From a virus: a DNA stretch of 27,055 bases. Positions 178 to 27,055 of this stretch are shown here, piece by piece. Location: the IMG/VR virus record IMGVR_UViG_3300028610_003630, positions 1 to 27,055 of that record. One strand, given 5' to 3'. A model generated the notes under the pieces. That model did not search any database, had not been told where the DNA came from, and saw only the letters and a list, made by a program, of their open reading frames with translations. Every line of letters starts with the position of its first letter. Position 1 is the first letter of the stretch. The translations under genes and the position numbers were made by a program.

Positions 178-947
178 TGGCTGCCATAGAGCTTTTTGAA
201 TTCCTGGTCGACGGGACCTATTACCGCTACACTTCCGGCAGCGTGACGGTTGTCAAAGGCGGCGAAGATTTTACGGCTGAGCCCATCAGCCGGAGCGCTT
301 TGAAGAGCACGGACGATATAAACAGCACGACGCTTACTATTCGGACCATGCGCGACAACCCGTTTACCGTTGTGGCACTGACCGCACAGCAGCCGGCCAG
401 TGTCACCGTCTACGGGGAACTGTCGGATTCCACCTGGGCAACCATCTGGAAGGGGCGCATGGTTAGCATGAACATGCAAGGTTCAGAAGCTGAGATCGTG
501 ACGGAAGGTCTGTTGTCGATAATTCAACGGCCGGCGCTCAATGCCAGATATCAGATACTCTGTCGACACGTCCTTTATGGTAATTTCTGCGGGGTTACCG
601 CTGCCACTTACAAGTTTGTCGGCACCGTGGATGCTGTGGACGGAACGGCTCTTACTATAACAGGGCTTGATGCGGAAGCAAATGGTTATTATGAAGGGGG
701 CTATTGCAAGTTCGGCACCTATGATTTCCGCACCATAGTTTCCCATATCGGAGATGACATTGTCATATACAATGCGGTTCCTGGTCTGGTGGTGACAACG
801 GCTGTTGATGTGTATCCCGGTTGTGACCATACGGAAACGGATTGTGGGACCAAATACTCGAACCTGGTGAACTATGGGGGGTTCCCCTGGATACCTTCGG
901 GTCGCAATCCATTTGCCAACCCTACGCCGAAGAAGCGACGACGATAA
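177..947 (+). CDS. Tail hub protein, DUF2163 / phage BR0599 family
   Basis: A 256-residue protein. The N-terminal two thirds fit DUF2163, and the last 45 residues have the BR0599 pattern: a GCD start, a second Cys seven residues later, an N-x-x-N-Y-G-G-F-P motif and a basic tail. In related siphoviruses and gene transfer agents this protein forms the hub closing the distal tail, comparable to lambda gpL. Four cysteines stand out, C129, C138, C216 and C223. Their spacing (x8 in the first pair, x6 in the second) resembles the iron-sulfur ligands of the gpL-type hub. It begins at an ATG overlapping the previous stop, and the tip gene follows after 10 bases, the usual hub-tip order. Confidence 0.85.
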   Translation: MAAIELFEFLVDGTYYRYTSGSVTVVKGGEDFTAEPISRSALKSTDDINSTTLTIRTMRDNPFTVVALTAQQPASVTVYGELSDSTWATIWKGRMVSMNMQGSEAEIVTEGLLSIIQRPALNARYQILCRHVLYGNFCGVTAATYKFVGTVDAVDGTALTITGLDAEANGYYEGGYCKFGTYDFRTIVSHIGDDIVIYNAVPGLVVTTAVDVYPGCDHTETDCGTKYSNLVNYGGFPWIPSGRNPFANPTPKKRRR

Positions 948-957
948 AGGGAATAAA

Positions 958-3378
958 ATGAATATCGGTCTTTATTTATTTGTGATGGCGGCGCAATATA
1001 TCCTGCGGCCCACAACAAAACAGATCGAACTTACTTCTCCCTGGGAAAGCCTGGATTTCCCGGAAGCCGACCTGGGTTCCCCGATACCTGTAGTCTTCGG
1101 AACGCGGTGGGTGAGTAACCCCAATGTGGTATGGTACGGTGACATCAAGACGCGTAATGTGAACGTGAAAGAAGGAAGCCTCTGGCCATTCGGGATAGGA
1201 GATAAGAAAAAGTTCCTGCATCATAAATATTATCTGGGGATGCACATGGCGATTTGTCATTATCCCGTTGACGCCTTGGTGAGAATAAGAGCCGGCGATC
1301 AAATTATTTACAATGACGGCGATGTGACTACCAATACCACCCTCACCATAGACAAACCGGATGTATTCGGCGGCCCCAAGCAAGAAGGGGGTGTTGAGGG
1401 AGATGTTGATATTGCCTTCGGCGCACCAGATCAACCGGTAAATACCTATCTACAGTTACAGCTTGAGTCTTCTATTCCAGCCTTTAGAGGTAATGTCTGT
1501 GTCATCCTGAACCAAGTATATTTGGCGGCTAAGAGCGCCGATATCCGCCCATGGGCCTACTATATGAAGTGGTTGGATTCGGCCAGTTGTGGACCGAACT
1601 CAAAGGACATGAACCCGGCCCATATTATCAACCTGGCCCTGACCGAAAGTTGGGGGTTGAAACAAGATACGGGTGATATTGATTCCGATTCTTTCACCGC
1701 AGCGAGCTCCCAATTAGATACCGAAGAACTTGGGCTTTCCGTTGTGTGGCAAACCAGCGCGCCGATAAAAGAATTCTTCCAAAATGTCTTACAACACATT
1801 ATGGGGGCCTTGTACACAGACCCGGAAACCGGGAAGTTCACGTTGAAACTGTTTCGCCAGGAAGACGAATCAGTCTTGACCTTGAATGAGACGAATGTAA
1901 CCGAAGTTTTAAATTACGAACGCCCCCGGCTTTCCGAGTTGGTCAATCAGGTGACGATTCACTATACCGACCGGGAAGATTTTGACCAGATGGTTTCTCT
2001 TCATAATCAAGGGCTCATCGAACAGGTGAGCGGGATAATTAATAGTCGTGATATTTATTACGATATGGTAGTGGAAAAGGCTACGGCGATGAAGCTTGCG
2101 GCCAGGGATCTACGGAATCTCTCAACTCCACTTGCCAACGTCAAATTAATTGCGAACAGGGAAGCCCTGGGCGTACGTATAGGCGATGTCGTTACGCTGG
2201 ATTGGAGTCGGTACGGGATATCATCTCAAGATCTGCGGGTAATGAATATCGATTACGGCAACTTGCAGGCCGGTGAAATCCGCATCCAGGCGATCCAGGA
2301 TGTTTATGGGGTGGACGCTTCACTGTATGCGGATCCACCTGCGTCCAAGTGGTCCACACCATGGAATGAGCCGGCTGATGCCGATTACCGGGTGCTGTTT
2401 GAAGTGCCCTATGCCCTGCTTGTAGGCCGCCTGGGCTCCTCATCCACGGTCTGGGATGAAGTGGCGGACGATGCGGGATGGGTGGTGTCTGCTATCCAAA
2501 AACCATCCGGGGATTCCGGCATGTATGAACTCTGGACTCGGCTCACGGCCGGCAGTTATCTCCACGCTAGCGACCATCTCGCCCCCTTTGCCCCCGTGGC
2601 GACGCTCGATGAAGATATCGATCCGGAGGTCACCACGGGCACTACCATTACAGAAGTCCACGACCTGGACACGGTTGAGACCGAAACCTATTGCATCATC
2701 GGGACTGAATTCTGCGAGGTGACCGCCATTGATGCCGGCGCGGGAACCATCACCTTGAAGCGCGGGGTACTGGATACGGTTCCCGGTTCACACTCTCAGG
2801 GGGATCGCGTGTATTTTGCCGATACCCACCTCGGGGAAGATCCAACCGAGTACGCTAGTGCGGATGTCGTGAAATCAAAAGTCCTGCCGCAGACCTCGCT
2901 CGGCGTTCTGGACATCGGGGATGCAACCGAAGACACTACCACAATGGCCGATCGCATGTTTCGGGCTTATCCCCCTGGCAACTTCCAGTTGAATTCTTCC
3001 GCCTGGCCGGCCTACATCACCGGAGCACTGACCCTCACTTGGGCGCACCGAGATAGATTGACACAGGGTCAAGCTTACACACAGCAGGACGCGGGCGACA
3101 TCGGTCCAGAGGCGGGGACGACTTACATCGTCAAGATTTGGGATGAAGAAGATGATCTCATTGTAAATGAAACCGGAATCGAGATTACGAACCATGCGCT
3201 CACCATAGCTGACGAGATAACGCTTTCGGCTCTGGCGGCCGGCGCGCGACCGAACGAAACAATGCGGGTGGTCCTCTACTCCGCGCGCGAGGGGTTCGAC
3301 GCTTGGCAAGAGCATGATTTTGTTATCCTCGAATGTCGAGGATACGGCATGTTCTATGGCGATTACTACGGAGAATAA
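958..3378 (+). CDS. J-like tail tip / host-specificity protein
   Basis: An 806-residue protein. The open frame extends upstream to 874, but the ATG at 958 is preferred because AAAGGGAATAAA precedes it and the longer form would overlap the hub gene. Residues about 38-62 carry the signature of the phage-tail protein family related to lambda J and gene transfer agent gp15 (IPVVFGTRW, then NPNVVWYGD). Residues about 230-480 fit the hub-like core of that family. The C-terminal third is beta-rich and probably reaches toward the host receptor. It sits directly after the hub gene and before the DUF2793 gene, as expected for a tail-tip module. It is shorter than lambda J. The family is secure; receptor binding is inferred. 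Confidence 0.85.
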   Translation: MNIGLYLFVMAAQYILRPTTKQIELTSPWESLDFPEADLGSPIPVVFGTRWVSNPNVVWYGDIKTRNVNVKEGSLWPFGIGDKKKFLHHKYYLGMHMAICHYPVDALVRIRAGDQIIYNDGDVTTNTTLTIDKPDVFGGPKQEGGVEGDVDIAFGAPDQPVNTYLQLQLESSIPAFRGNVCVILNQVYLAAKSADIRPWAYYMKWLDSASCGPNSKDMNPAHIINLALTESWGLKQDTGDIDSDSFTAASSQLDTEELGLSVVWQTSAPIKEFFQNVLQHIMGALYTDPETGKFTLKLFRQEDESVLTLNETNVTEVLNYERPRLSELVNQVTIHYTDREDFDQMVSLHNQGLIEQVSGIINSRDIYYDMVVEKATAMKLAARDLRNLSTPLANVKLIANREALGVRIGDVVTLDWSRYGISSQDLRVMNIDYGNLQAGEIRIQAIQDVYGVDASLYADPPASKWSTPWNEPADADYRVLFEVPYALLVGRLGSSSTVWDEVADDAGWVVSAIQKPSGDSGMYELWTRLTAGSYLHASDHLAPFAPVATLDEDIDPEVTTGTTITEVHDLDTVETETYCIIGTEFCEVTAIDAGAGTITLKRGVLDTVPGSHSQGDRVYFADTHLGEDPTEYASADVVKSKVLPQTSLGVLDIGDATEDTTTMADRMFRAYPPGNFQLNSSAWPAYITGALTLTWAHRDRLTQGQAYTQQDAGDIGPEAGTTYIVKIWDEEDDLIVNETGIEITNHALTIADEITLSALAAGARPNETMRVVLYSAREGFDAWQEHDFVILECRGYGMFYGDYYGE

Positions 3379-3384
3379 AAAAAC

Positions 3385-3891
3385 ATGGCTGCCACCGTAG
3401 GAGGGAATTTAGGGCTGTCCCATTCCTGGGCCTTCCGTGAAAGCGGCTGGAAAACAGGGAACGACGCCAATCTGTTGAAGCTGGACGGTATTGTTCAGCT
3501 GGGTGTTATTTCAAACGTTGTCACAGCTCCACCAGGCGGCGAGAGCGACGGGGACCGGTATATTATCCCAGCCGGCGCTACGGGCGCGTGGAGTGGCAAG
3601 ACAAACCAGATAGCGATATATGTCGTAAACGCCTACACCTACTACATCCCGGCCGCGGGTTACCTGTGTTATGTGACGGCCGATACGAACATTTATGTCT
3701 ATTCCGGTGCCGCTTGGGTGGCTGTTGCCGGCGGGGCGGGTCCGCTGCCAGCCGGGACCTGGTCCGATCCTTTTGTTTACGGCTCAGGTGCTGCCTATGG
3801 TTGGTTCAATGCTACGCTGGGTTTTTTCATGGGGAAAATTGGTTCTGCGCCATCAGCTGATGACGATGGCAACTTCATCCCTTGGGGTTAA
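3385..3891 (+). CDS. DUF2793 tail protein
   Basis: A 168-residue protein. Residues about 45-120 match the DUF2793 layout: a PP-x-G stretch, D-R-Y-I-I-P, G-A-W-S-G-K, then a P-A-A-G-Y segment, and Y-S-G-A-A-W near the end of the domain. DUF2793 proteins are encoded beside tail tip genes in gene transfer agent-like and siphovirus modules and probably decorate the tip or start a fibre. The start ATG lies six bases after the tip gene stop, with GGAGAA upstream. The C-terminus (DDDGNFIPWG) resembles capping sequences of short tail appendages. The exact structural role is unknown. Confidence 0.8.
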   Translation: MAATVGGNLGLSHSWAFRESGWKTGNDANLLKLDGIVQLGVISNVVTAPPGGESDGDRYIIPAGATGAWSGKTNQIAIYVVNAYTYYIPAAGYLCYVTADTNIYVYSGAAWVAVAGGAGPLPAGTWSDPFVYGSGAAYGWFNATLGFFMGKIGSAPSADDDGNFIPWG

Positions 3892-3908
3892 AAAAGGAAG
3901 GTCTCACC

Positions 3909-6551
3909 ATGCGCAGAAAAAGCTTTTCCGTCTTAACGGCTGTTTGGTTCGTACTGCTTCCCCTGATAGTTTGGGCAGGGGGAATACATCAGCATAGCCC
4001 GAGAGGGGCGAACCAAGACGCTTTCCACGACACGACCCAATATGATCCCGGCGACTTGCTGATGGCGGCCAAGGCCGAGATAGACACCGTAGATGCGACG
4101 TACCTCTCCGGTGACGGATCGGCTATTACCAATGTCGGCGCCGCGGCTTCAGTGGCTGTCACCCTGGAAGCTAAGGCCGCTGAAAATATTACCAAGGGCG
4201 ATGCCGTCTACATCTCCGGAGCAACCGGACAATTACCGCAGGTTAGCCTGTGCGATAACCGGGACCACGCCAAGGCGAGTATTATCGGTTTGGCGCTTGA
4301 AACGAAAACCAGCGGCCAGAATATCGATATTCGGACTTTTGGCGAATTGACGGGACTCAATACTTTAGCTTGGTCGGATGGCGACGATTTATACTTGACC
4401 GTCGCCGGTGCCTATGATAATACGGAGCCTACCGGTGGGGAAGTATATCACATCGGAAAGGTGCAATACGACCATGTGAGCGCGGGCATCATTTTTGTAT
4501 CCGTTCGCACTCATCCGCATTATCTTGCGTCCGGGGCTGGCGAGGATATCGACCTCCGCATGGGGGATGCCGCAGGTTTGACGGCCGTGTCGTTCAAGGA
4601 TTCAAACGATGTCGAGGTCGCCACCCTGAACAGCGACGGCGCTATGGAAGTTACCAGCCTCGCCTCATCAGCGCTTAGCATCACCTCCGGAACCGTGTAT
4701 ATAAACGGGGTGACGCATACGATGCTCACCGAGTTGACCGACGAAAGCGAGACCGCCCTGCACAGTCATGTGGGTGGCGGCGGCGGGATCGCCAGCAGTG
4801 ATACCACCGATTCTCTGCTTACAAATTATTGGCTGAAAATCGCTGGTGACATTGTCGAGGTGGAGCAAGACGTAGGCCGGGAACAATTTCTCGATGGGGG
4901 GGACAACGACTACGATGTCCAAGCGCTGGGGGTTTTTCAAGGCCGGATCTATGCAGGTATACGCCATGGAACCTATGGAACCATTTGGACGTTCGATGCG
5001 GATACCTCAAGTATCTTCAGCTACTTCAACAATACGGATCACGAAGAAGCACATTGCTTTCTCGTTCACAAGGGGCTGCTCTTCATCGGCAACGGCGATG
5101 ACACGTCGGACGGGGATATCGATACCTTCGACGGCGTTTCCACCTGGGCCAACGTATACGACGGTGCCTATGATGTCGTCCATGATATGGAGACCTATGG
5201 AAATTGCATTTATGCGGCCATGGGCGGCCTCTCCGGAGAGGGCGATATCCTGGTGAGCTGCGATGGGGGAAGCACCTGGGACCTATCTCTCGACACTATC
5301 GATTATCATGTTCGCAATTTGGCAAAGTGGAACGGGAAACTTTATTGTACAACTTCCCAAGCGACCACCAGCGGATATGCCTATCTATGGGAATTCGACG
5401 GGGTGGAATGGGATGCAATCGGCAACCCGAACACCACCCATGACTGCCTTGCCTTGGAAGGCTATCAAAATTATCTGTATATGGGCATGGGGCCGGGGGC
5501 GAATGAAGGAGATCTTTACCGCTGGGACGGAGAAGCTTTTGAGGCACCCTTCATTAATACCACCTATGAGAGTATTTACGACCTTATAGTATATAATGGC
5601 CGATTGTTGATCGGTTTCGGGGATTCTGTGGACGGCGGAGATTTGTACGTCTTGGACGGCGAGGAATTCTGGAAACTCTGGGATAATACCTACGATTATT
5701 TGGAGTCCTTTGCCGAATACAACAATGAGCTCTATATCGGGGTCGGCGGATCGGGCAATGACAATGCCAGAGTCTTCCAGTATCGAGGGGGAATAGTCGA
5801 GGGTACCCCGCCCCTATCTCCCTTCGAGATGGACGTTACTTTCCTTGAAAAAGTAACGGTGCTGGATACCTTGGTTTCCGATTCTGCACTTGTGGTCAAA
5901 AATAATATCCTTATGACTACGTCAGATGGGGCCACCAGCCATGGGGCCAGGTTGGCAATCGTCTTTTCTCCGGGAGAGACAGCAACCGAATCACTGAGCG
6001 ATGTCGCTCTGATCCAAGCAAAAGATATCGGCGGGACGGTTGAGATTATCGGGCAGGATGAAGCGGGTAATGTAGCAGCCATAACTCGGAATATCGAATT
6101 CTACCCCGCTGCTATGGAACTGTCAGACTCACGTCCTTATGTGACGGAAAGCCACAACATAAGGACTAAGGCACAGACCTACATTGCTGAGCATAGGGCC
6201 TTTGAACTGTTGCAGCTTTGGGCCTGGGAGAACGGCAACTTGCCGCAAAATAAATTTATCATCCTGCACAAAGATGTCAGTGCCCAGGTGCCCATGGTAC
6301 AGAGCCAGTACCTGCGCGACAAGAAAGCGCGCGAATGGGATGCCGGGGAAGAATCAAAGCTCGCGCGGTCGCGTTTATCTCTCGTTAGGTGGATGGATAG
6401 ACGTAGGCGAATAATTGCGGTTTCAGATTCACTGCTCGATGCCGGAATTGACTTTGTTTTTTGCCCAGCGATCCCCGACCTGAAAAATGCCCCTGCGGTT
6501 TATGAGAAGAAACCCCAGCCGGCGCGGATAACCACTTCTTTTCTCAGATAA
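3909..6551 (+). CDS. Fibre-like protein with signal peptide and seven propeller-type repeats
   Basis: An 880-residue protein. The ATG at 3909 is chosen because AAGGAAGG lies 8 bases upstream; an in-frame ATG at 3882 overlaps the previous gene and lacks a site. Residues 1-24 look like a Sec signal peptide: MRRK, a hydrophobic core ending LLPLIVWA, and a plausible cut after VWA. Residues about 70-210 resemble the KGDAVYISG domain of many phage fibre proteins. Residues about 325-627 hold seven repeats of the form NG-x-LYIG-x-G then GDLY-x-x-DG-x-x-W, consistent with a seven-bladed beta propeller. The last 140 residues are helical and basic and were not recognised. Position after the tip and DUF2793 genes suggests a receptor-binding fibre, but the signal peptide instead suggests export. 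Function is open. Confidence 0.75.
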   Translation: MRRKSFSVLTAVWFVLLPLIVWAGGIHQHSPRGANQDAFHDTTQYDPGDLLMAAKAEIDTVDATYLSGDGSAITNVGAAASVAVTLEAKAAENITKGDAVYISGATGQLPQVSLCDNRDHAKASIIGLALETKTSGQNIDIRTFGELTGLNTLAWSDGDDLYLTVAGAYDNTEPTGGEVYHIGKVQYDHVSAGIIFVSVRTHPHYLASGAGEDIDLRMGDAAGLTAVSFKDSNDVEVATLNSDGAMEVTSLASSALSITSGTVYINGVTHTMLTELTDESETALHSHVGGGGGIASSDTTDSLLTNYWLKIAGDIVEVEQDVGREQFLDGGDNDYDVQALGVFQGRIYAGIRHGTYGTIWTFDADTSSIFSYFNNTDHEEAHCFLVHKGLLFIGNGDDTSDGDIDTFDGVSTWANVYDGAYDVVHDMETYGNCIYAAMGGLSGEGDILVSCDGGSTWDLSLDTIDYHVRNLAKWNGKLYCTTSQATTSGYAYLWEFDGVEWDAIGNPNTTHDCLALEGYQNYLYMGMGPGANEGDLYRWDGEAFEAPFINTTYESIYDLIVYNGRLLIGFGDSVDGGDLYVLDGEEFWKLWDNTYDYLESFAEYNNELYIGVGGSGNDNARVFQYRGGIVEGTPPLSPFEMDVTFLEKVTVLDTLVSDSALVVKNNILMTTSDGATSHGARLAIVFSPGETATESLSDVALIQAKDIGGTVEIIGQDEAGNVAAITRNIEFYPAAMELSDSRPYVTESHNIRTKAQTYIAEHRAFELLQLWAWENGNLPQNKFIILHKDVSAQVPMVQSQYLRDKKAREWDAGEESKLARSRLSLVRWMDRRRRIIAVSDSLLDAGIDFVFCPAIPDLKNAPAVYEKKPQPARITTSFLR

Positions 6552-6616
6552 GGAGGGGAAGCGAACTTTCTTCAACAACATCTCCGAGTAATGCAACCCA
6601 TAACATAGGAGATTTT

Positions 6617-6796
6617 ATGGCTGATTCGACCCCCGATCCGAATCCGAAAACGGTTCCTTTCGAGAAAAAGGCTTTCATAGAGTCTTTCCAGAAGGGATAC
6701 AAAGACGGATTCAGAGCGGCGCGACAAGTATACGCGCCACCGAAGCAGACCAAGCCGGCGGGCCGGCCGAACGTACCCGAGGTGTCTGATGAGTGA
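6617..6796 (+). CDS. Small protein with a GY-x-x-GF motif
   Basis: A 59-residue protein with ATG at 6617 and ATAGGAGATTTT upstream. It has an acidic, proline-rich start, a central helix with KGYKDGF, and a proline/basic end. The KGYKDGF stretch has the same glycine-aromatic tetrad as the next two genes, so the three may be related or act together. Its stop overlaps the next start by 8 bases, which suggests translational coupling. No family recognised. Confidence 0.6.
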   Translation: MADSTPDPNPKTVPFEKKAFIESFQKGYKDGFRAARQVYAPPKQTKPAGRPNVPEVSDE

Positions 6797-7001
6797 TTAT
6801 TCGGACGGGTACGCCGCGGGTTATGCAGCCGGGTACCAGGGTGGGTACAACAATGGCTTTAGCACAGGCCATTCGCAAGGTTATCCTCCTGGCCATAACC
6901 AGGGTTATAATGACGGTTGGGGCCTGGGCTACTCACAAGGATACCCAGAGGGATACTCCACCAGCTATGCCAACGGCTACGCCGCTGGATTAGCGGCCTG
7001 A
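6789..7001 (+). CDS. GX3 tetrad-repeat protein, copy 1
   Basis: A 70-residue protein that is almost entirely a four-residue repeat. After MSDYSD come exactly 16 tetrads of the form G-[YFHWL]-x-x, with one S in place of G in tetrad 14; the last is GLAA. Composition is extreme in Gly and Tyr. A comparable pattern, the deca-GX3 motif, is known in the eukaryotic Yae1/Lto1 proteins and, in shorter form, in flagellar FliH, where glycines line one face of a helix. Whether this protein is helical is not known. It is translationally coupled to the gene before it. Function unknown; a virion or assembly role is inferred only from its place in the late operon. Confidence 0.7.
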   Translation: MSDYSDGYAAGYAAGYQGGYNNGFSTGHSQGYPPGHNQGYNDGWGLGYSQGYPEGYSTSYANGYAAGLAA

Positions 7002-7011
7002 AGGAGGGTGC

Positions 7012-7227
7012 ATGAGCGATTATTCAGACGGCTACGCCGCGGGGAACCCCGTGGGCAATGCCAAAGGAAACAGCGATGGTCAAGGGGCCGGGTATGCCTC
7101 AGGCTGGGCCGATGGTTATTGGGCGGGGCACGGCAACGGGCATAGTGACGGTCATTGGTTTGGCCGCGGCGATGGAAATCAGGCCGGTTATCCAGACGGC
7201 TACGCTGCAGGTTTAGCGGATCGCTAA
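7012..7227 (+). CDS. GX3 tetrad-repeat protein, copy 2
   Basis: A 71-residue protein with AAGGAGG upstream of the ATG. It is a paralogue of the preceding protein: the first 11 residues are identical (MSDYSDGYAAG) and both end in GYAAGLA. After MSDYSD there are again exactly 16 tetrads, then a final Arg. The interior differs: position 2 of the tetrad is often Asn, His, Trp, Gln or Arg instead of Tyr, yet Gly at position 1 is kept in all 16. Conservation of repeat number with divergence of the second position argues for a selected structure rather than random slippage. Function unknown. Confidence 0.7.
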   Translation: MSDYSDGYAAGNPVGNAKGNSDGQGAGYASGWADGYWAGHGNGHSDGHWFGRGDGNQAGYPDGYAAGLADR

Positions 7228-7250
7228 AAGCCGACCGAAACCAGGAAACC

Positions 7251-7288
7251 AGAGGACGGCAGAGGATTTCACTCCTTTGTCGTCCTCT
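7251..7288 (+). other. Strong intergenic hairpin without a U-tract
   Basis: The arms 7251-7266 and 7273-7288 pair over 16 positions, including two G-U pairs, around a 6-base loop. The outer eight pairs (AGAGGACG with CGTCCTCT) are perfect. No T-run follows on either strand, so it is not a classical intrinsic terminator. It sits between the tetrad-repeat genes and the holin-like gene and could set mRNA processing or stability. Confidence 0.6.
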
Positions 7289-7308
7289 GAACAGAAGGTG
7301 ATTATATC

Positions 7309-7518
7309 GTGTTTAAAGAAGCCAATGGGCAAATATCGAACATCCGAGTGATGTCGTTCCTTTGCCTGTTTTATCTCTTTTTTCTCGCCACTTACCAGAC
7401 GTTGAGAGACAATATCAATTTCGAGATATTGGTATTGTTCGCTGTCTGCGCTTTTGCGCCGAAAGTCGTGCAGAAGTTCGCAGAGCCGAAAACAGGGACG
7501 AGTGAAGAGAAGGAGTAG
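7309..7518 (+). CDS. Small two-helix membrane protein, holin-like
   Basis: A 69-residue protein starting with GTG at 7309, with AGAAGGTGA upstream. Two hydrophobic segments are visible, about residues 14-31 (FLCLFYLFFLA) and 38-54 (FEILVLFAVCAF), followed by a charged tail ending in EEKE. Size and layout fit a class II holin or a small phage inner membrane protein. The next gene is also membrane-anchored, which supports a lysis cassette, but the endolysin candidate is far away at 21.1 kb. The family assignment is tentative. Confidence 0.55.
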   Translation: MFKEANGQISNIRVMSFLCLFYLFFLATYQTLRDNINFEILVLFAVCAFAPKVVQKFAEPKTGTSEEKE

Positions 7519-7938: not shown

Positions 7939-8454
7939 ATGTCAAGCGGCGATATGTTAGGTTTCTTTACGGCGCAGTCGGCCTTGATCCCCAGTGCAAA
8001 GGGACCGCAGTATACGCTCAGTCGAGGGGGGAGCAACCCGATAGAACTCATCCCCGCGTTAGCTTTCGACAAGACAGCTATCGAATATGCCGATTTCCTG
8101 GGCCAGATGCCCGACTATTACGACGGTGGCGGAGTGACTGTCGACCTGGTGTGGTATTGCGTAATAAATACCGGAGATGTTGTGTGGGCGGCCGCCTTCC
8201 GCAGAATGGAAGCCGAAGTCGAAGATTTTGACAGCCTGCACAGCTATGCTTTCAATGGCGCTACGGATGCGGCTCCCGATCCGGCCGGATCCATAACCCA
8301 TTTCGGGGGTATCAGCTTCACGGATGGAGCGGATATGGATAGCGTTGCGGCGGGGGAAACTTTCGTCTTGCGCGTACAGCGTACGGCTACCGACGGATCG
8401 GATAACCTGAACAATGACGCGTTGCTTTGGAGTATTGCGCTCAAGGAGAGTTGA
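7939..8454 (+). CDS. Beta-rich virion surface protein
   Basis: A 171-residue protein with AAAGGAAAGG upstream of the ATG. It is rich in beta-type sequence, with a conserved-looking core LAFDKTAIEYADF, then MPDYYDGGGVTVDLVWY and GDVVWAAAFRRME. This pattern occurs in small hypothetical structural proteins of environmental tailed phages that sit near fibre genes. It is one of the last genes of the late operon and is followed by a laminin G-like protein after one base. A capsid or tail decoration role is inferred; a host-contact role is possible. Confidence 0.55.
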   Translation: MSSGDMLGFFTAQSALIPSAKGPQYTLSRGGSNPIELIPALAFDKTAIEYADFLGQMPDYYDGGGVTVDLVWYCVINTGDVVWAAAFRRMEAEVEDFDSLHSYAFNGATDAAPDPAGSITHFGGISFTDGADMDSVAAGETFVLRVQRTATDGSDNLNNDALLWSIALKES

Positions 8455-8455
8455 A

Positions 8456-9268
8456 ATGGCTGTCAGGCTACAGCAAGATGCGGATAAGATATATTCCGCC
8501 GATGATGCTTTCCCGACGCTGGCCTCAACGTTCACTCTATGCATTTGGTTCAAGCACATGGCGTCGGGGAGTGACGACACCTCGGAAGGGACCTTGATTT
8601 CTTTGGGGAATGCGTTTGCCGCAAACAAAGAAGTATGCAATCTCCAAGTGAAATACAGTACGAGTTCCGATCCGAGTATCCAGTTCGTGCATTACTTCTC
8701 CGACACGGATGCGGTCTATGAGACCGCCAGGGATTTGGCCGAGGGGGAATGGCATGGGGTTGCCCTTTCTTTCGATAGTGCGAATCCCAATGTCGATCCG
8801 GTCTTGTACGTTGACGGAGTGCTCGATACCTGGGACCTGGTCAGCACGAACGGAGTGGGCACCACCCAGACGCGCGACGGGGACGCAGGGGTAATTGATA
8901 CGGTGGCCATCGGAACGAATATGACGGCTGACATGTCCTATGGGGCCAGCGGCGCGAATCCTGGCGGGGATCTGGCCGAGATCGCTTTTTGGGAAGATGA
9001 ACTCGATGCGGAGAAATTGGCAGGCTTGACCAGCGGATTTTCCCCGCTGTTCTTTCTCGATGGTCTATATTTTTATCATCAAATGCAGCGGGATTACCGA
9101 GACTGGATACGGTACTTGGCTCTAACCTGGACGGGTATCCCCGTTGGACTGCCAGGCCCGGTTATGGTATATCCGAAGCCGATGGAATACCAAGTCGGCG
9201 TCTTTCCTGTGATACCTGTAATCCCTCAGCAAAATGTGAGCATTGGGTGGGATTGGGACGTTCATTAG
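8456..9268 (+). CDS. LamG/concanavalin-like protein, probable virion surface
   Basis: A 270-residue protein. The ATG at 8456 is chosen over the upstream frame start at 8414 because AAGGAGAG lies before it. Residues about 15-190 fit the LamG/ConA-like jelly roll: FTLCIWFKH, then GEWHGVALSF and VLYVDGVLD, then LAEIAFWEDELDAEKLAGL. Such domains bind sugars on phage fibres and capsids. The C-terminal 75 residues are aromatic and proline-rich and include RDYRDWIRYLALTWTG; this tail may anchor the protein to the virion. It is the last gene before the late terminator. Confidence 0.65.
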   Translation: MAVRLQQDADKIYSADDAFPTLASTFTLCIWFKHMASGSDDTSEGTLISLGNAFAANKEVCNLQVKYSTSSDPSIQFVHYFSDTDAVYETARDLAEGEWHGVALSFDSANPNVDPVLYVDGVLDTWDLVSTNGVGTTQTRDGDAGVIDTVAIGTNMTADMSYGASGANPGGDLAEIAFWEDELDAEKLAGLTSGFSPLFFLDGLYFYHQMQRDYRDWIRYLALTWTGIPVGLPGPVMVYPKPMEYQVGVFPVIPVIPQQNVSIGWDWDVH

Positions 9269-20889: not shown

Positions 20890-21099
20890 ATGCATGCAGA
20901 TTTTATCACCATGCAGATGGAGACCATCAGCTACGCGCTGGACCGGTATTACGGGGACACATCACGGTCGGAAGAAAAAACATTAGCGGAGTTGCAGGAA
21001 TTGCGCAGTGATCTTGATATCTATATCATTGCGCTCGAAAAACAACTTTCCCGTGCCGATATAGCCGTCAAAGCGGCGAGGAAGAGAAGGTTTAAATAA
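20890..21099 (+). CDS. Small helical protein between HNH and endolysin
   Basis: A 69-residue protein with GAAAGGAATTGAGCC upstream. It is helical throughout (MQMETISYALDRYYGD, then ELRSDLDIYIIALEKQL) and ends in a basic KAARKRRFK tail. Its stop overlaps the endolysin start (TAATG). A role in lysis control is possible from position only. Confidence 0.5.
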   Translation: MHADFITMQMETISYALDRYYGDTSRSEEKTLAELQELRSDLDIYIIALEKQLSRADIAVKAARKRRFK

Positions 21100-21461
21100 T
21101 GCCGAATTTCAGTCGAAGAAGTCTCTTGATTCTTGAGACGTGCGATGTGCGCCTACAATCGATCTGTCACCAAGCCATAGAGATTATGGATTTCTCCGTC
21201 ATAGACGGCGCGCGTGACAAAGAGGAACAAAACGTCTTGTTTGATCAAGGGCTATCCCTGGTCAAGTATCCGCATTCAAAGCACAATCGCACGCCGTCAA
21301 AAGCTGTCGATCTCGCGCCTTATCCGATTGACTGGAGAGACATCGAGCGATTCCGGATACTGGGCCAGATCATTACCCTCGATTCCACCTTTCAGCAAGC
21401 GCGCATTATTTGGGGCGGCTGGTGGACATGGAAAGATTGGGGTCATTTCGAGCTGTTGTGA
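21099..21461 (+). CDS. Endolysin, M15-type peptidase
   Basis: A 120-residue protein fitting the M15 (VanY/T5 endolysin-like) peptidases. Zinc ligands are H62 and D71 in SKHNRTPSKAVDLAP and H116 in DWGHFEL, with D113 as the likely catalytic acid. DGARDKEEQNVLFDQG is the family's substrate-side motif. These enzymes cut L-Ala-D-Glu or similar bonds in the peptidoglycan stem. It lacks a signal peptide, so it needs a holin. The holin-like genes lie about 14 kb away in the late block. Confidence 0.8.
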   Translation: MPNFSRRSLLILETCDVRLQSICHQAIEIMDFSVIDGARDKEEQNVLFDQGLSLVKYPHSKHNRTPSKAVDLAPYPIDWRDIERFRILGQIITLDSTFQQARIIWGGWWTWKDWGHFELL

Positions 21462-23748: not shown

Positions 23749-24270
23749 ATGCCAGGACCCAAACCCAAACCTACAGCGCTCAAAGTAATCGAAGGAAACC
23801 CAGGTCAACGGCGACTTCCTGAGAATGAACCCATGCCGGACACGGGTCTTCCGGAACCTCCCTCGATCCTTTGTGACCTGGCGAAACAAGAATGGGAAGA
23901 GAGGGGTCCAGGACTGGCCAGAATGGGCATATTGACCCAAGTGGACGTAGCGATATATGCTGCTTATTGTCAGTCTTACGCAGACTATTGCAGGGCGCGA
24001 GAGGGGATTCGACTTCTCATCGAGGGATTGCCGAAGGGGGAAACTTCCAGAGCGTTCCTCACCAGGGGGACGCTCGGGACTGACATTAAAAACCCACTCT
24101 TTAGGATTGCCCGTGAATCGGCACAAGACATGATACGCTTTGCCGGTGAACTGGGGTTGACGCCAGCAGCGCGGGCGCGTTTGGAAGTGATACCACTAGA
24201 GGACCAAAAAGAGTCGAAATTGAAATCACTTCTGTATGTTGAGAAGAAGAAAGGTAGGGGTGAGACATGA
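23749..24270 (+). CDS. terS: Small terminase subunit, P27 family
   Basis: A 173-residue protein. The ATG at 23749 is preferred over an upstream TTG at 23740 for its AAAGGGAG site. It fits the P27 family: MPGPKPKPTALKVIEGNPGQ at the start, LPENEPMP, then EWEERGPGLARMGILTQVD and YCQSYADYC. The middle and end are helical with DIKNPLFRIARESAQDM. It binds the packaging site and guides the large subunit. It is followed by a portal fragment rather than by the large subunit. Confidence 0.9.
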   Translation: MPGPKPKPTALKVIEGNPGQRRLPENEPMPDTGLPEPPSILCDLAKQEWEERGPGLARMGILTQVDVAIYAAYCQSYADYCRAREGIRLLIEGLPKGETSRAFLTRGTLGTDIKNPLFRIARESAQDMIRFAGELGLTPAARARLEVIPLEDQKESKLKSLLYVEKKKGRGET

Positions 24271-24464
24271 ACGCGGAGATGGCTAAACGAAGGGCTGTAT
24301 TCGCCTGTGTGCAGGCCCTGTCTCAATCTGTGGCACAACTCCCTCTGCGTCTTTTCCGTCGCCCTGGACGCGACAGAGAGTATCTGGATGAGCATCCGGC
24401 GGCCTTACTGATCGACCGGCCGATTGATTTTTTGAAGTTGAGAAGGAGAAGGAATGAGACATGA
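24267..24464 (+). pseudogene. Stray N-terminal fragment of a portal gene
   Basis: A 65-residue frame. Residues 4-52 (MAKRRAVFACVQALSQSVAQ, then LPLRLF, DRE-x-LDEHPAALLI) match the N-terminus of the portal protein at 26774. The DNA also matches: about 24294-24420 aligns with 26915-27041 without gaps at an offset of 2621, including a 24-base identical run. The frame then breaks into unrelated sequence (FLKLRRRRNET). It overlaps the small terminase stop and the next start, so it is probably still translated. It is most likely a remnant of an earlier recombination. Confidence 0.75.
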
Positions 24465-26777: not shown

Positions 26778-27055
26778 AAGGCATTATGGAGCGTCTGGCC
26801 AGACCGCAAGCGGCTGCGAGCGACACGCTTGAACGCCTGATACTTGAAACTTATGGCGGAATCACGACCGCAAGCGGAGTGAATGTCACCACAGAGAAAG
26901 CCATGCGCTTGGGGGTTGTGTTCGCTTGTGTGCTAGTCTTGTCGCAATCCGTAGCACAACTCCCCCTGCATCTCTTTCGCCGCTCCGGGCGCGACAGAGA
27001 GCGTCTGGATGAGCATCCGGCGGCCTTGTTGATCAAGAAATCGAATACATGGATG
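26774..27055 (+). CDS. Portal protein, HK97-type (5' part only)
   Basis: The first 94 residues of a portal protein cut by the window end. The typical start is visible: TYGGITTASGVNVTTEKAMR, then VFACVLVLSQSVAQLPLHLF and DEHPAALL. The portal is the ring at the capsid vertex through which DNA is packed and ejected. The start codon overlaps the membrane protein stop, so the two are translated together. A fragment of a related portal gene lies 2.6 kb upstream. Confidence 0.9.
   Translation, partial: MKGIMERLARPQAAASDTLERLILETYGGITTASGVNVTTEKAMRLGVVFACVLVLSQSVAQLPLHLFRRSGRDRERLDEHPAALLIKKSNTWM

What the first reader, a model, noticed from the sequence alone, without database searches (positions are those of the whole stretch)
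6789..7227. Twin proteins made of exactly 16 Gly-aromatic tetrads
Two adjacent late genes encode 70- and 71-residue proteins that share MSDYSD and then consist of exactly 16 tetrads of G-[aromatic or other]-x-x each. The tetrad count is the same but the second positions differ (mostly Tyr in copy 1, Tyr/Asn/His/Trp in copy 2). The gene before them carries a short KGYKDGF version. The eukaryotic Yae1/Lto1 deca-GX3 motif and FliH GxxxG repeats are the closest precedents I know. A clean 16-repeat phage pair in a late operon is unfamiliar to me. A helical Gly-face assembly, a silk-like solenoid or a virion glue are all possible.
Basis: partly seen in the sequence, partly recalled or inferred. Interest (0 to 1): 0.72.

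Follow-up and report, generated by a model that had tools for sequence, protein, structure and literature searches.

The report
Twin glycine-aromatic repeat phage proteins
A fragment of an uncultured bacterial virus carries, just after its tail-fibre gene, two neighbouring small genes whose proteins are almost entirely four-letter units starting with glycine; the glycines are kept by selection while nearly everything between them has changed, and a related virus lacks the genes, so they look like a real but optional add-on of unknown job.

Summary
Copy 1 (6789-7001, 70 aa) has 15 glycines in 16 tetrads (tetrad 14 is SYAN); copy 2 (7012-7227, 71 aa) has 16 of 16. The upstream 59-aa protein has only one GYKDGF and is not a repeat protein. 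Both genes are coding and selected: 13 of 16 lattice glycine codons differ only synonymously, and synonymous sites are saturated. The copies share an identical 11-residue start and a near-identical end, but in 12 interior tetrads not one of 36 non-glycine residues matches. In the nearest relative (L003), the tail fibre is followed directly by the small membrane protein that lies downstream here. The three-gene cassette (59+70+71 aa) is therefore a presence/absence insertion in a late operon. The Pfam Yae1_N match carries no homology signal: scrambling residues while keeping tetrad positions reproduces it. No stand-alone orthologue was found. AlphaFold gives no confident fold, and composition favours turns over helix. 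Best reading: an accessory late pair whose glycine-every-fourth chain self- or co-associates, perhaps at the fibre or envelope; function is inferred. Kind: new variant of known Gly-aromatic GxxxG repeats. Interest 0.4.

The parts
6789..7001 (+). Twin 1 (P0001), 70 aa: MSDYSD + 16 tetrads, 15 starting with Gly; x1 mostly Tyr; no Lys/Arg
7012..7227 (+). Twin 2 (P0002), 71 aa: MSDYSD + 16 Gly tetrads + Arg; Shine-Dalgarno-like GAAGGAGG just upstream
6789..6821 (+). Conserved N-terminal block of twin 1 (MSDYSDGYAAG), identical in protein to 7012-7044; 29/33 nt identical
7012..7044 (+). Conserved N-terminal block of twin 2 (MSDYSDGYAAG)
6975..6995 (+). Conserved C-terminal block of twin 1 (GYAAGLA)
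7198..7218 (+). Conserved C-terminal block of twin 2 (GYAAGLA)
6819..6962 (+). Diversified interior of twin 1 (tetrads 2-13): only the Gly lattice is shared with twin 2 (0 of 36 other residues)
7042..7185 (+). Diversified interior of twin 2 (tetrads 2-13)
6617..6796 (+). 59-aa gene (P0003) in the same cassette; its 3' end overlaps the start of twin 1; single GYKDGF; no relative found
6552..7308 (+). Stretch between fibre stop and small membrane gene; the three-gene cassette in it is absent from relative L003
3882..6551 (+). Upstream tail-fibre-like gene (46% identical to L003 gene; likely start ATG 3909)
7309..7518 (+). 69-aa hydrophobic, membrane-type protein directly downstream; homologue directly follows the fibre gene in L003
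7522..7920 (+). 132-aa protein with one hydrophobic segment, holin/spanin-like position; no family match
8414..9268 (+). 284-aa protein with Laminin_G_3 (concanavalin-like) domain, end of the late block

Best explanation
The twins are paralogous accessory genes, inserted as a small cassette between the tail-fibre gene and the downstream membrane-protein genes of a siphovirus-like phage. Shown: both frames are under strong purifying selection for Gly at every fourth residue and for the two ends, while the other residues have turned over almost completely; a relative does without the cassette. Inferred: the proteins are extended or turn-rich low-complexity chains in which Gly gives the backbone a repeated tight geometry and the residue after it (mostly aromatic or His/Asn) serves as an interchangeable sticker. 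They associate with themselves or each other, and with a partner bound by the conserved ends, and act late as an optional adhesive or scaffold accessory at the fibre or the cell envelope.
For: Gly lattice: 13 of 16 codons synonymous-only, 2 identical, 1 replaced; NG86 dN 0.52 with dS saturated. Shared ends, 0 of 36 shared interior x-residues against a shuffled mean of 4.0. Overlapping or closely spaced same-strand genes with a Shine-Dalgarno in an uninterrupted order of tail hub, fibre, twins, membrane proteins, LamG. Cassette missing in L003. Turn propensity above helix propensity, unlike FliH; no predicted fold. In unrelated phages similar Gly-Tyr tracts lie in surface-exposed or tail-type proteins: inovirus proteins between ectodomain and C-terminal membrane segment, and L269, L285, L042. 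Precedent for disordered Gly-rich chains with spaced aromatics that condense and adhere: tick GRP77 (PMC11794139).
Against: Nothing shows location, partner or expression. A purely disordered sticker chain would not need Gly at exactly every fourth position, so a defined packing is also implied and its nature is unknown. Aromatic x1 residues are not conserved between the copies (4 of 16 identical codons). Turn scores rest on old propensity tables entered from memory; AlphaFold with one or two sequences is weak evidence.
Confidence: 0.38

Rival explanations
1. GX3 helix pair: the twins form a homo- or hetero-complex of alpha-helices packed through a Gly face, as proposed for FliH dimers and for Yae1-Lto1, acting as an adaptor in tail assembly or lysis.
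For: A strict 4-residue Gly period is the classical mark of helix-helix packing; x1 Tyr/Phe excess as in FliH (over 45% in FliH GxxxG, PMC2674601); profile hits to Yae1_N and FliH; two different partners encoded side by side, as Yae1 and Lto1 pair (PMC4523923).
Against: Profile hits to Yae1_N are reproduced by position-preserving shuffles. Less E/Q/K and more N/S/P/T than FliH; mean helix cost 0.66-0.70 against 0.51 kcal/mol for 56 FliH repeats; five Pro; no hydrophobic moment at 100 degrees in twin 1; AlphaFold not helical.
Confidence: 0.25
2. Partner of the lysis or envelope step: small Gly-aromatic chains that bind the adjacent membrane proteins or cell wall late in infection.
For: The next genes are two short membrane-type proteins; L042 joins a similar tract to a domain that looks peptidase-like to the eye.
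Against: No signal peptide or membrane segment in the twins; the endolysin lies far away at 21099-21461; the membrane gene stands without the twins in L003.
Confidence: 0.15
3. Distal adhesin or fibre-tip accessory comparable in role to gp38 of S16: a Gly-based fold presenting variable residues, bound to the fibre by conserved ends.
For: Position directly after the fibre gene; conserved ends with a diversified interior on a Gly frame; S16 gp38 uses Gly-rich motifs with hypervariable segments (PMC6851490); a LamG protein nearby.
Against: gp38 has clustered Gly motifs (37 of 73 residues of that domain), an N-terminal helical attachment domain with Trp and a beta-helix; none is seen here. A close relative keeps its fibre without the cassette.
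Confidence: 0.12
4. Recently born or expanding repeat genes of little function: a short seed grew by duplication of 12-nt units and is tolerated in a late operon.
For: No orthologues; cassette absent in L003; pure Gly tetrads also arise as DNA microsatellites elsewhere (L422, L424).
Against: No DNA repeat left; saturated third positions with an intact Gly lattice and intact frames in both copies, which means long purifying selection.
Confidence: 0.1

Closest known systems
FliH/YscL GxxxG primary repeat segment (PMC2674601)
   Same: Gly every fourth residue, Tyr/Phe favoured right after Gly, number of repeats varies widely (m 0-12 in FliH)
   Different: FliH repeats sit in a larger protein with other domains and are rich in Glu/Gln/Ala/Lys; the twins are repeat only, low in charge and contain Pro, Asn, Ser, Thr
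Yae1/Lto1 deca-GX3 proteins (Pfam Yae1_N, PMC4523923)
   Same: Run of GX3 units; two different proteins of the kind work as a pair
   Different: 16 rather than 10 units, no C-terminal Trp, phage rather than eukaryote; profile score explained by periodicity alone
phrog_4785 (Streptomyces phage 94-aa proteins, for example Endor1 QMP84509.1 'flagellar assembly-like protein')
   Same: Small phage proteins with GY tetrads; best PHROG profile hit (7.6e-8)
   Different: N-terminal non-repeat domain, acidic tetrads, located near HNH endonuclease and nucleotide kinase genes rather than tail genes
GX-dipeptide phage mini-proteins (for example L129, L195, L203)
   Same: Stand-alone, short leader, nearly the whole body made of Gly-aromatic repeats
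   Different: Gly every second residue; those neighbours that match a functional family are mostly replication and recombination genes
Gly-Tyr linker tracts in phage surface proteins (inovirus P0004/P0006; L269, L285)
   Same: Gly-aromatic tetrads with Asn/Ser/Asp; L269/L285-type tracts are turn-rich by the same score
   Different: Tract is one segment of a large protein, not a separate gene
S16 gp38 adhesin polyglycine sandwich (PMC6851490)
   Same: Gly frame with variable residues, protein that works at the fibre tip
   Different: Gly spacing, size and attachment domain differ

Membership tests
Yae1/Lto1 deca-GX3 | Sequence homology to Yae1_N beyond Gly periodicity | tested here: not met
   Copy 1 28.9 bits, but five position-preserving shuffles score 22.1-27.9 and three full shuffles give no hit; copy 2 has no Yae1_N hit
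Yae1/Lto1 deca-GX3 | Ten GX3 units and, in Lto1, a conserved C-terminal Trp | tested here: not met
   16 units; C-termini ...GLAA and ...GLADR
Yae1/Lto1 deca-GX3 | Hetero-complex formation through the Gly motif | not testable with these tools
   no complex prediction or experiment possible
FliH GxxxG repeat | Tyr/Phe-rich x1 | tested here: inconclusive
   Copy 1 12/16 Tyr/Phe, copy 2 5/16
FliH GxxxG repeat | Glu/Gln/Ala make up about 2/3 of x3, Asn rare, helix-forming composition | tested here: not met
   Copy 1 x3 A4 Q3 E1 of 16 with N2 T2 P1; copy 2 D6 A5; helix cost and turn scores
FliH GxxxG repeat | Further domain after the repeat (full-length FliH) | tested here: not met
   Proteins end with the repeat; NCBIfam FliH scores at most 33.6 and 22.3 bits against cut-offs of 180 and more
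phrog_4785 | Full-length match including N-terminal domain | tested here: not met
   Only residues 27-67 against profile 46-86 in the best stretch; a true member scores 120.7 bits over its whole length
gp38-type fibre adhesin | Polyglycine-II motifs and helical attachment domain with Trp | tested here: not met
   No Gly-run motifs and no N-terminal domain in 70-71 residues (PMC6851490)
Accessory (moron-like) late insertion | Present in one and absent in another related phage at the same site | tested here: met
   L003: fibre gene, then directly the homologue of the 69-aa protein (12/20 residues identical, 0 of 2000 shuffles)
Accessory (moron-like) late insertion | Own promoter and terminator | tested here: not met
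   No + strand promoter- or terminator-like site flanks the cassette in a simple consensus scan

The most novel reading that the evidence does not exclude
The twins are the first stand-alone members of a class of phage proteins in which a fixed Gly-every-fourth lattice with constant ends carries a freely diversified filling, making a modular self-assembling material (or a matched heterodimer) for the outside of the virion or the lysing cell.
Probability: 0.15. Interest if true: 0.75.

Novelty: new variant of a known kind. Interest (0 to 1): 0.4.

Why it matters
Gly-every-fourth repeats are described mainly as parts of larger proteins such as FliH and Yae1, and what the Gly lattice itself does is unsettled. 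A pair of proteins that are almost nothing but the lattice, with the filling replaced by evolution, would be a minimal natural system to test whether GxxxG repeats fold, pair or condense on their own.

Tried and rejected
Homology to Yae1 (rejected by shuffle control). DNA slippage (no tandem repeat; four Gly codons). A diversity-generating retroelement as the source of the varied interior: no second copy resembling a template in the window beyond shuffled level and no reverse transcriptase among the annotated genes; the rest of the phage is not held. Synteny through hub, neighbour and fibre proteins in IMG/VR: only L003. Orthologues in phages, plasmids and 398 genomes drawn from the phylum of an Aquabacterium MAG: only FliH, microsatellites and acidic tracts among those inspected. 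The fibre profile found nothing in 398 genomes, without a positive control. The genome-wide pattern scan returned mostly FliH, tails resembling those of Rpn-type nucleases (by eye), and archaeal or other tracts; caution: that pattern demands a non-G second base at x2 and would miss the twins themselves (Ser AGC in tetrad 5), as would the patterns. AlphaFold gave no usable model, so no fold search was run. PDB sequence search: nothing significant.

Full report
What is there. The window is a 27,055-base virus record. Its left part is a + strand late block: tail assembly protein 177-947 (phrog_778), tail hub 874-3378 (phrog_1101, E 2e-237), DUF2793 tail-fibre protein 3385-3891, an 889-codon fibre-like gene 3882-6551, then the 59-, 70- and 71-residue genes, a 69-aa and a 132-aa membrane-type protein, a 171-aa protein and a 284-aa LamG protein. 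Twin 1 starts inside the end of the 59-aa gene; twin 2 has a strong ribosome-binding site (GAAGGAGG) and starts 10 bases after twin 1 stops.

Check of the observation. Both proteins are MSDYSD plus 16 tetrads. Copy 1 has Gly in 15 of 16 (SYAN is tetrad 14), copy 2 in 16 of 16. The concentration of Gly in one phase of four was not reached in 200,000 shuffles of either protein. There is no DNA tandem repeat. The 59-aa neighbour is not a repeat protein.

Selection. Aligned codon by codon, the lattice Gly codons show 2 identical, 13 synonymous and 1 non-synonymous difference; the other three tetrad positions show 12, 13 and 14 non-synonymous differences of 16. Synonymous divergence is saturated by NG86 while dN is 0.52. 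So the Gly lattice has been held by selection for a long time. The ends are different: residues 1-11 are identical with 4 silent changes, and GYAAGLA is shared at the end with 3 silent changes. Silent change is lower at the ends (7 of 17 codons) than in the middle (10 of 12; Fisher p 0.053, suggestive only). In tetrads 2-13 none of 36 non-Gly residues agree, against a mean of 4.0 when tetrads are permuted (probability of 0: 0.006; a post hoc test). Anatomically: constant ends, constant Gly lattice, replaced filling.

Presence and absence. The only relative found in IMG/VR is L003 (hub 64%, fibre 46% identical). Its contig ends 106 bases after the fibre stop, but those bases encode MFRDEAGKISNVRVMSFMCL, matching MFKEANGQISNIRVMSFLCL of the window's 69-aa protein (12 of 20 identical, score 75 against at most 38 in 2000 shuffles). 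The fibre gene is thus followed directly by the membrane gene and the cassette is absent at this site. Whether the cassette was gained here or lost there cannot be told, but that lineage does without it there; only part of its genome is held. This is one comparison. In the phage collection twin 1 hits only Streptomyces phages and inoviruses (E up to 1); neither appears among the ten commonest organism names listed for the 757 records that carry a hub relative, although the full lists were not compared.

Kinship. Twin 1 passes the Pfam Yae1_N cut-off (28.9 against 27.5 bits) and hits FliH models far below their cut-offs. Five shuffles of twin 1 that keep tetrad positions score 22.1, 22.6, 24.1, 25.3 and 27.9 bits, and three full shuffles score nothing. 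The match therefore measures G-aromatic periodicity and says nothing on descent. Pattern scans show that Gly-tetrad tracts are common: acidic tracts appended to other domains (L246, L253, L267), long GNHxGDHx proteins with a shared leader in tandem copies (L261, L279), fibre-like GNVTGNLTG tracts (L242), Gly-Tyr tracts in phage surface or tail-type proteins (inovirus P0004 and P0006, L269, L285), FliH in genomes. A different class, about 50-120 aa GX-dipeptide proteins, is very common; where their neighbours match a functional family, these are mostly replication or recombination genes. None of the hits examined was a stand-alone, low-charge protein of pure tetrads like the twins, with the limits of the patterns given under 'tried and rejected'.

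Structure. AlphaFold gives mean pLDDT 51 (twin 2 alone) and 45 (twin 1 with twin 2) and no secondary structure; weak evidence with so few sequences. Mean Pace-Scholtz helix cost is 0.70 and 0.66 kcal/mol against 0.51 for 56 FliH repeats. By Chou-Fasman turn rules 11 of 15 and 12 of 15 tetrads qualify as turns with Gly third, against 132 of 392 in FliH. Tetrads such as YPDG, YNDG, YPEG and YNNG look like turn signatures. This favours extended or turn-rich chains, but the exact 4-residue Gly period is also what a helix interface would demand, so the GX3 rival keeps a quarter of the weight.

Mechanism. Shown: selection on the lattice and ends (hence coding), late-operon position, accessory status. 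Inferred: association of the chains through the lattice and through aromatic residues, with the constant ends as docking sites, serving the fibre or the envelope late in infection. The published tick GRP77 (PMC11794139) shows that a small Gly-rich chain with spaced aromatics can condense and become adhesive; it is an analogy, not kinship.

Verdict. Real, selected, lineage-restricted and structurally odd, but of a known repeat kind and without functional evidence. Interest 0.4.

Noticed in passing
window 3909-4000; L003 12055-12150: The fibre-like gene most likely starts at ATG 3909, and both it (MRRKSFSVLTAVWFVLLPLIVWAGG) and its L003 relative (MKYAKQLFLVGLFLALSATLAAGG) begin with what looks by eye like a Sec signal peptide, unusual for a phage fibre.
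   Followed up: partly
window 24292-24414 and 26913-27035: A 122-base stretch of what looks like the start of the portal gene is duplicated (clear ungapped alignment); the copy before the large terminase gene lies in a short ORF (24267-24464) that looks like a degraded portal fragment.
   Followed up: partly
L129, L195, L203, L039, L091 and about 100 other IMG/VR loci: Very common 50-120 aa phage proteins made of GX dipeptides (GYGDGYGSG...), sometimes in several copies per contig; of 78 neighbouring ORFs scanned, those matching a functional PHROG family are mostly replication/recombination (DnaB, Erf, RecT, HNH), and 12 match phrog_18306 of unknown function.
   Followed up: partly
L261 2858-3822 and 3936-4142, L279, L281, L277, L250, L286: Phage proteins with a shared type of leader (for example ...EEILKVASFDYDEKGKLV..) followed by 13-58 G-[N/D]-H-x tetrads, in tandem copies with varying repeat number; possibly a beta-solenoid family.
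   Followed up: no
L419 1138-2298, L420 1793-2815: Rodent-faecal inoviruses carry a Gly-Tyr tetrad tract in a large surface-type protein between its ectodomain and C-terminal membrane segment.
   Followed up: no
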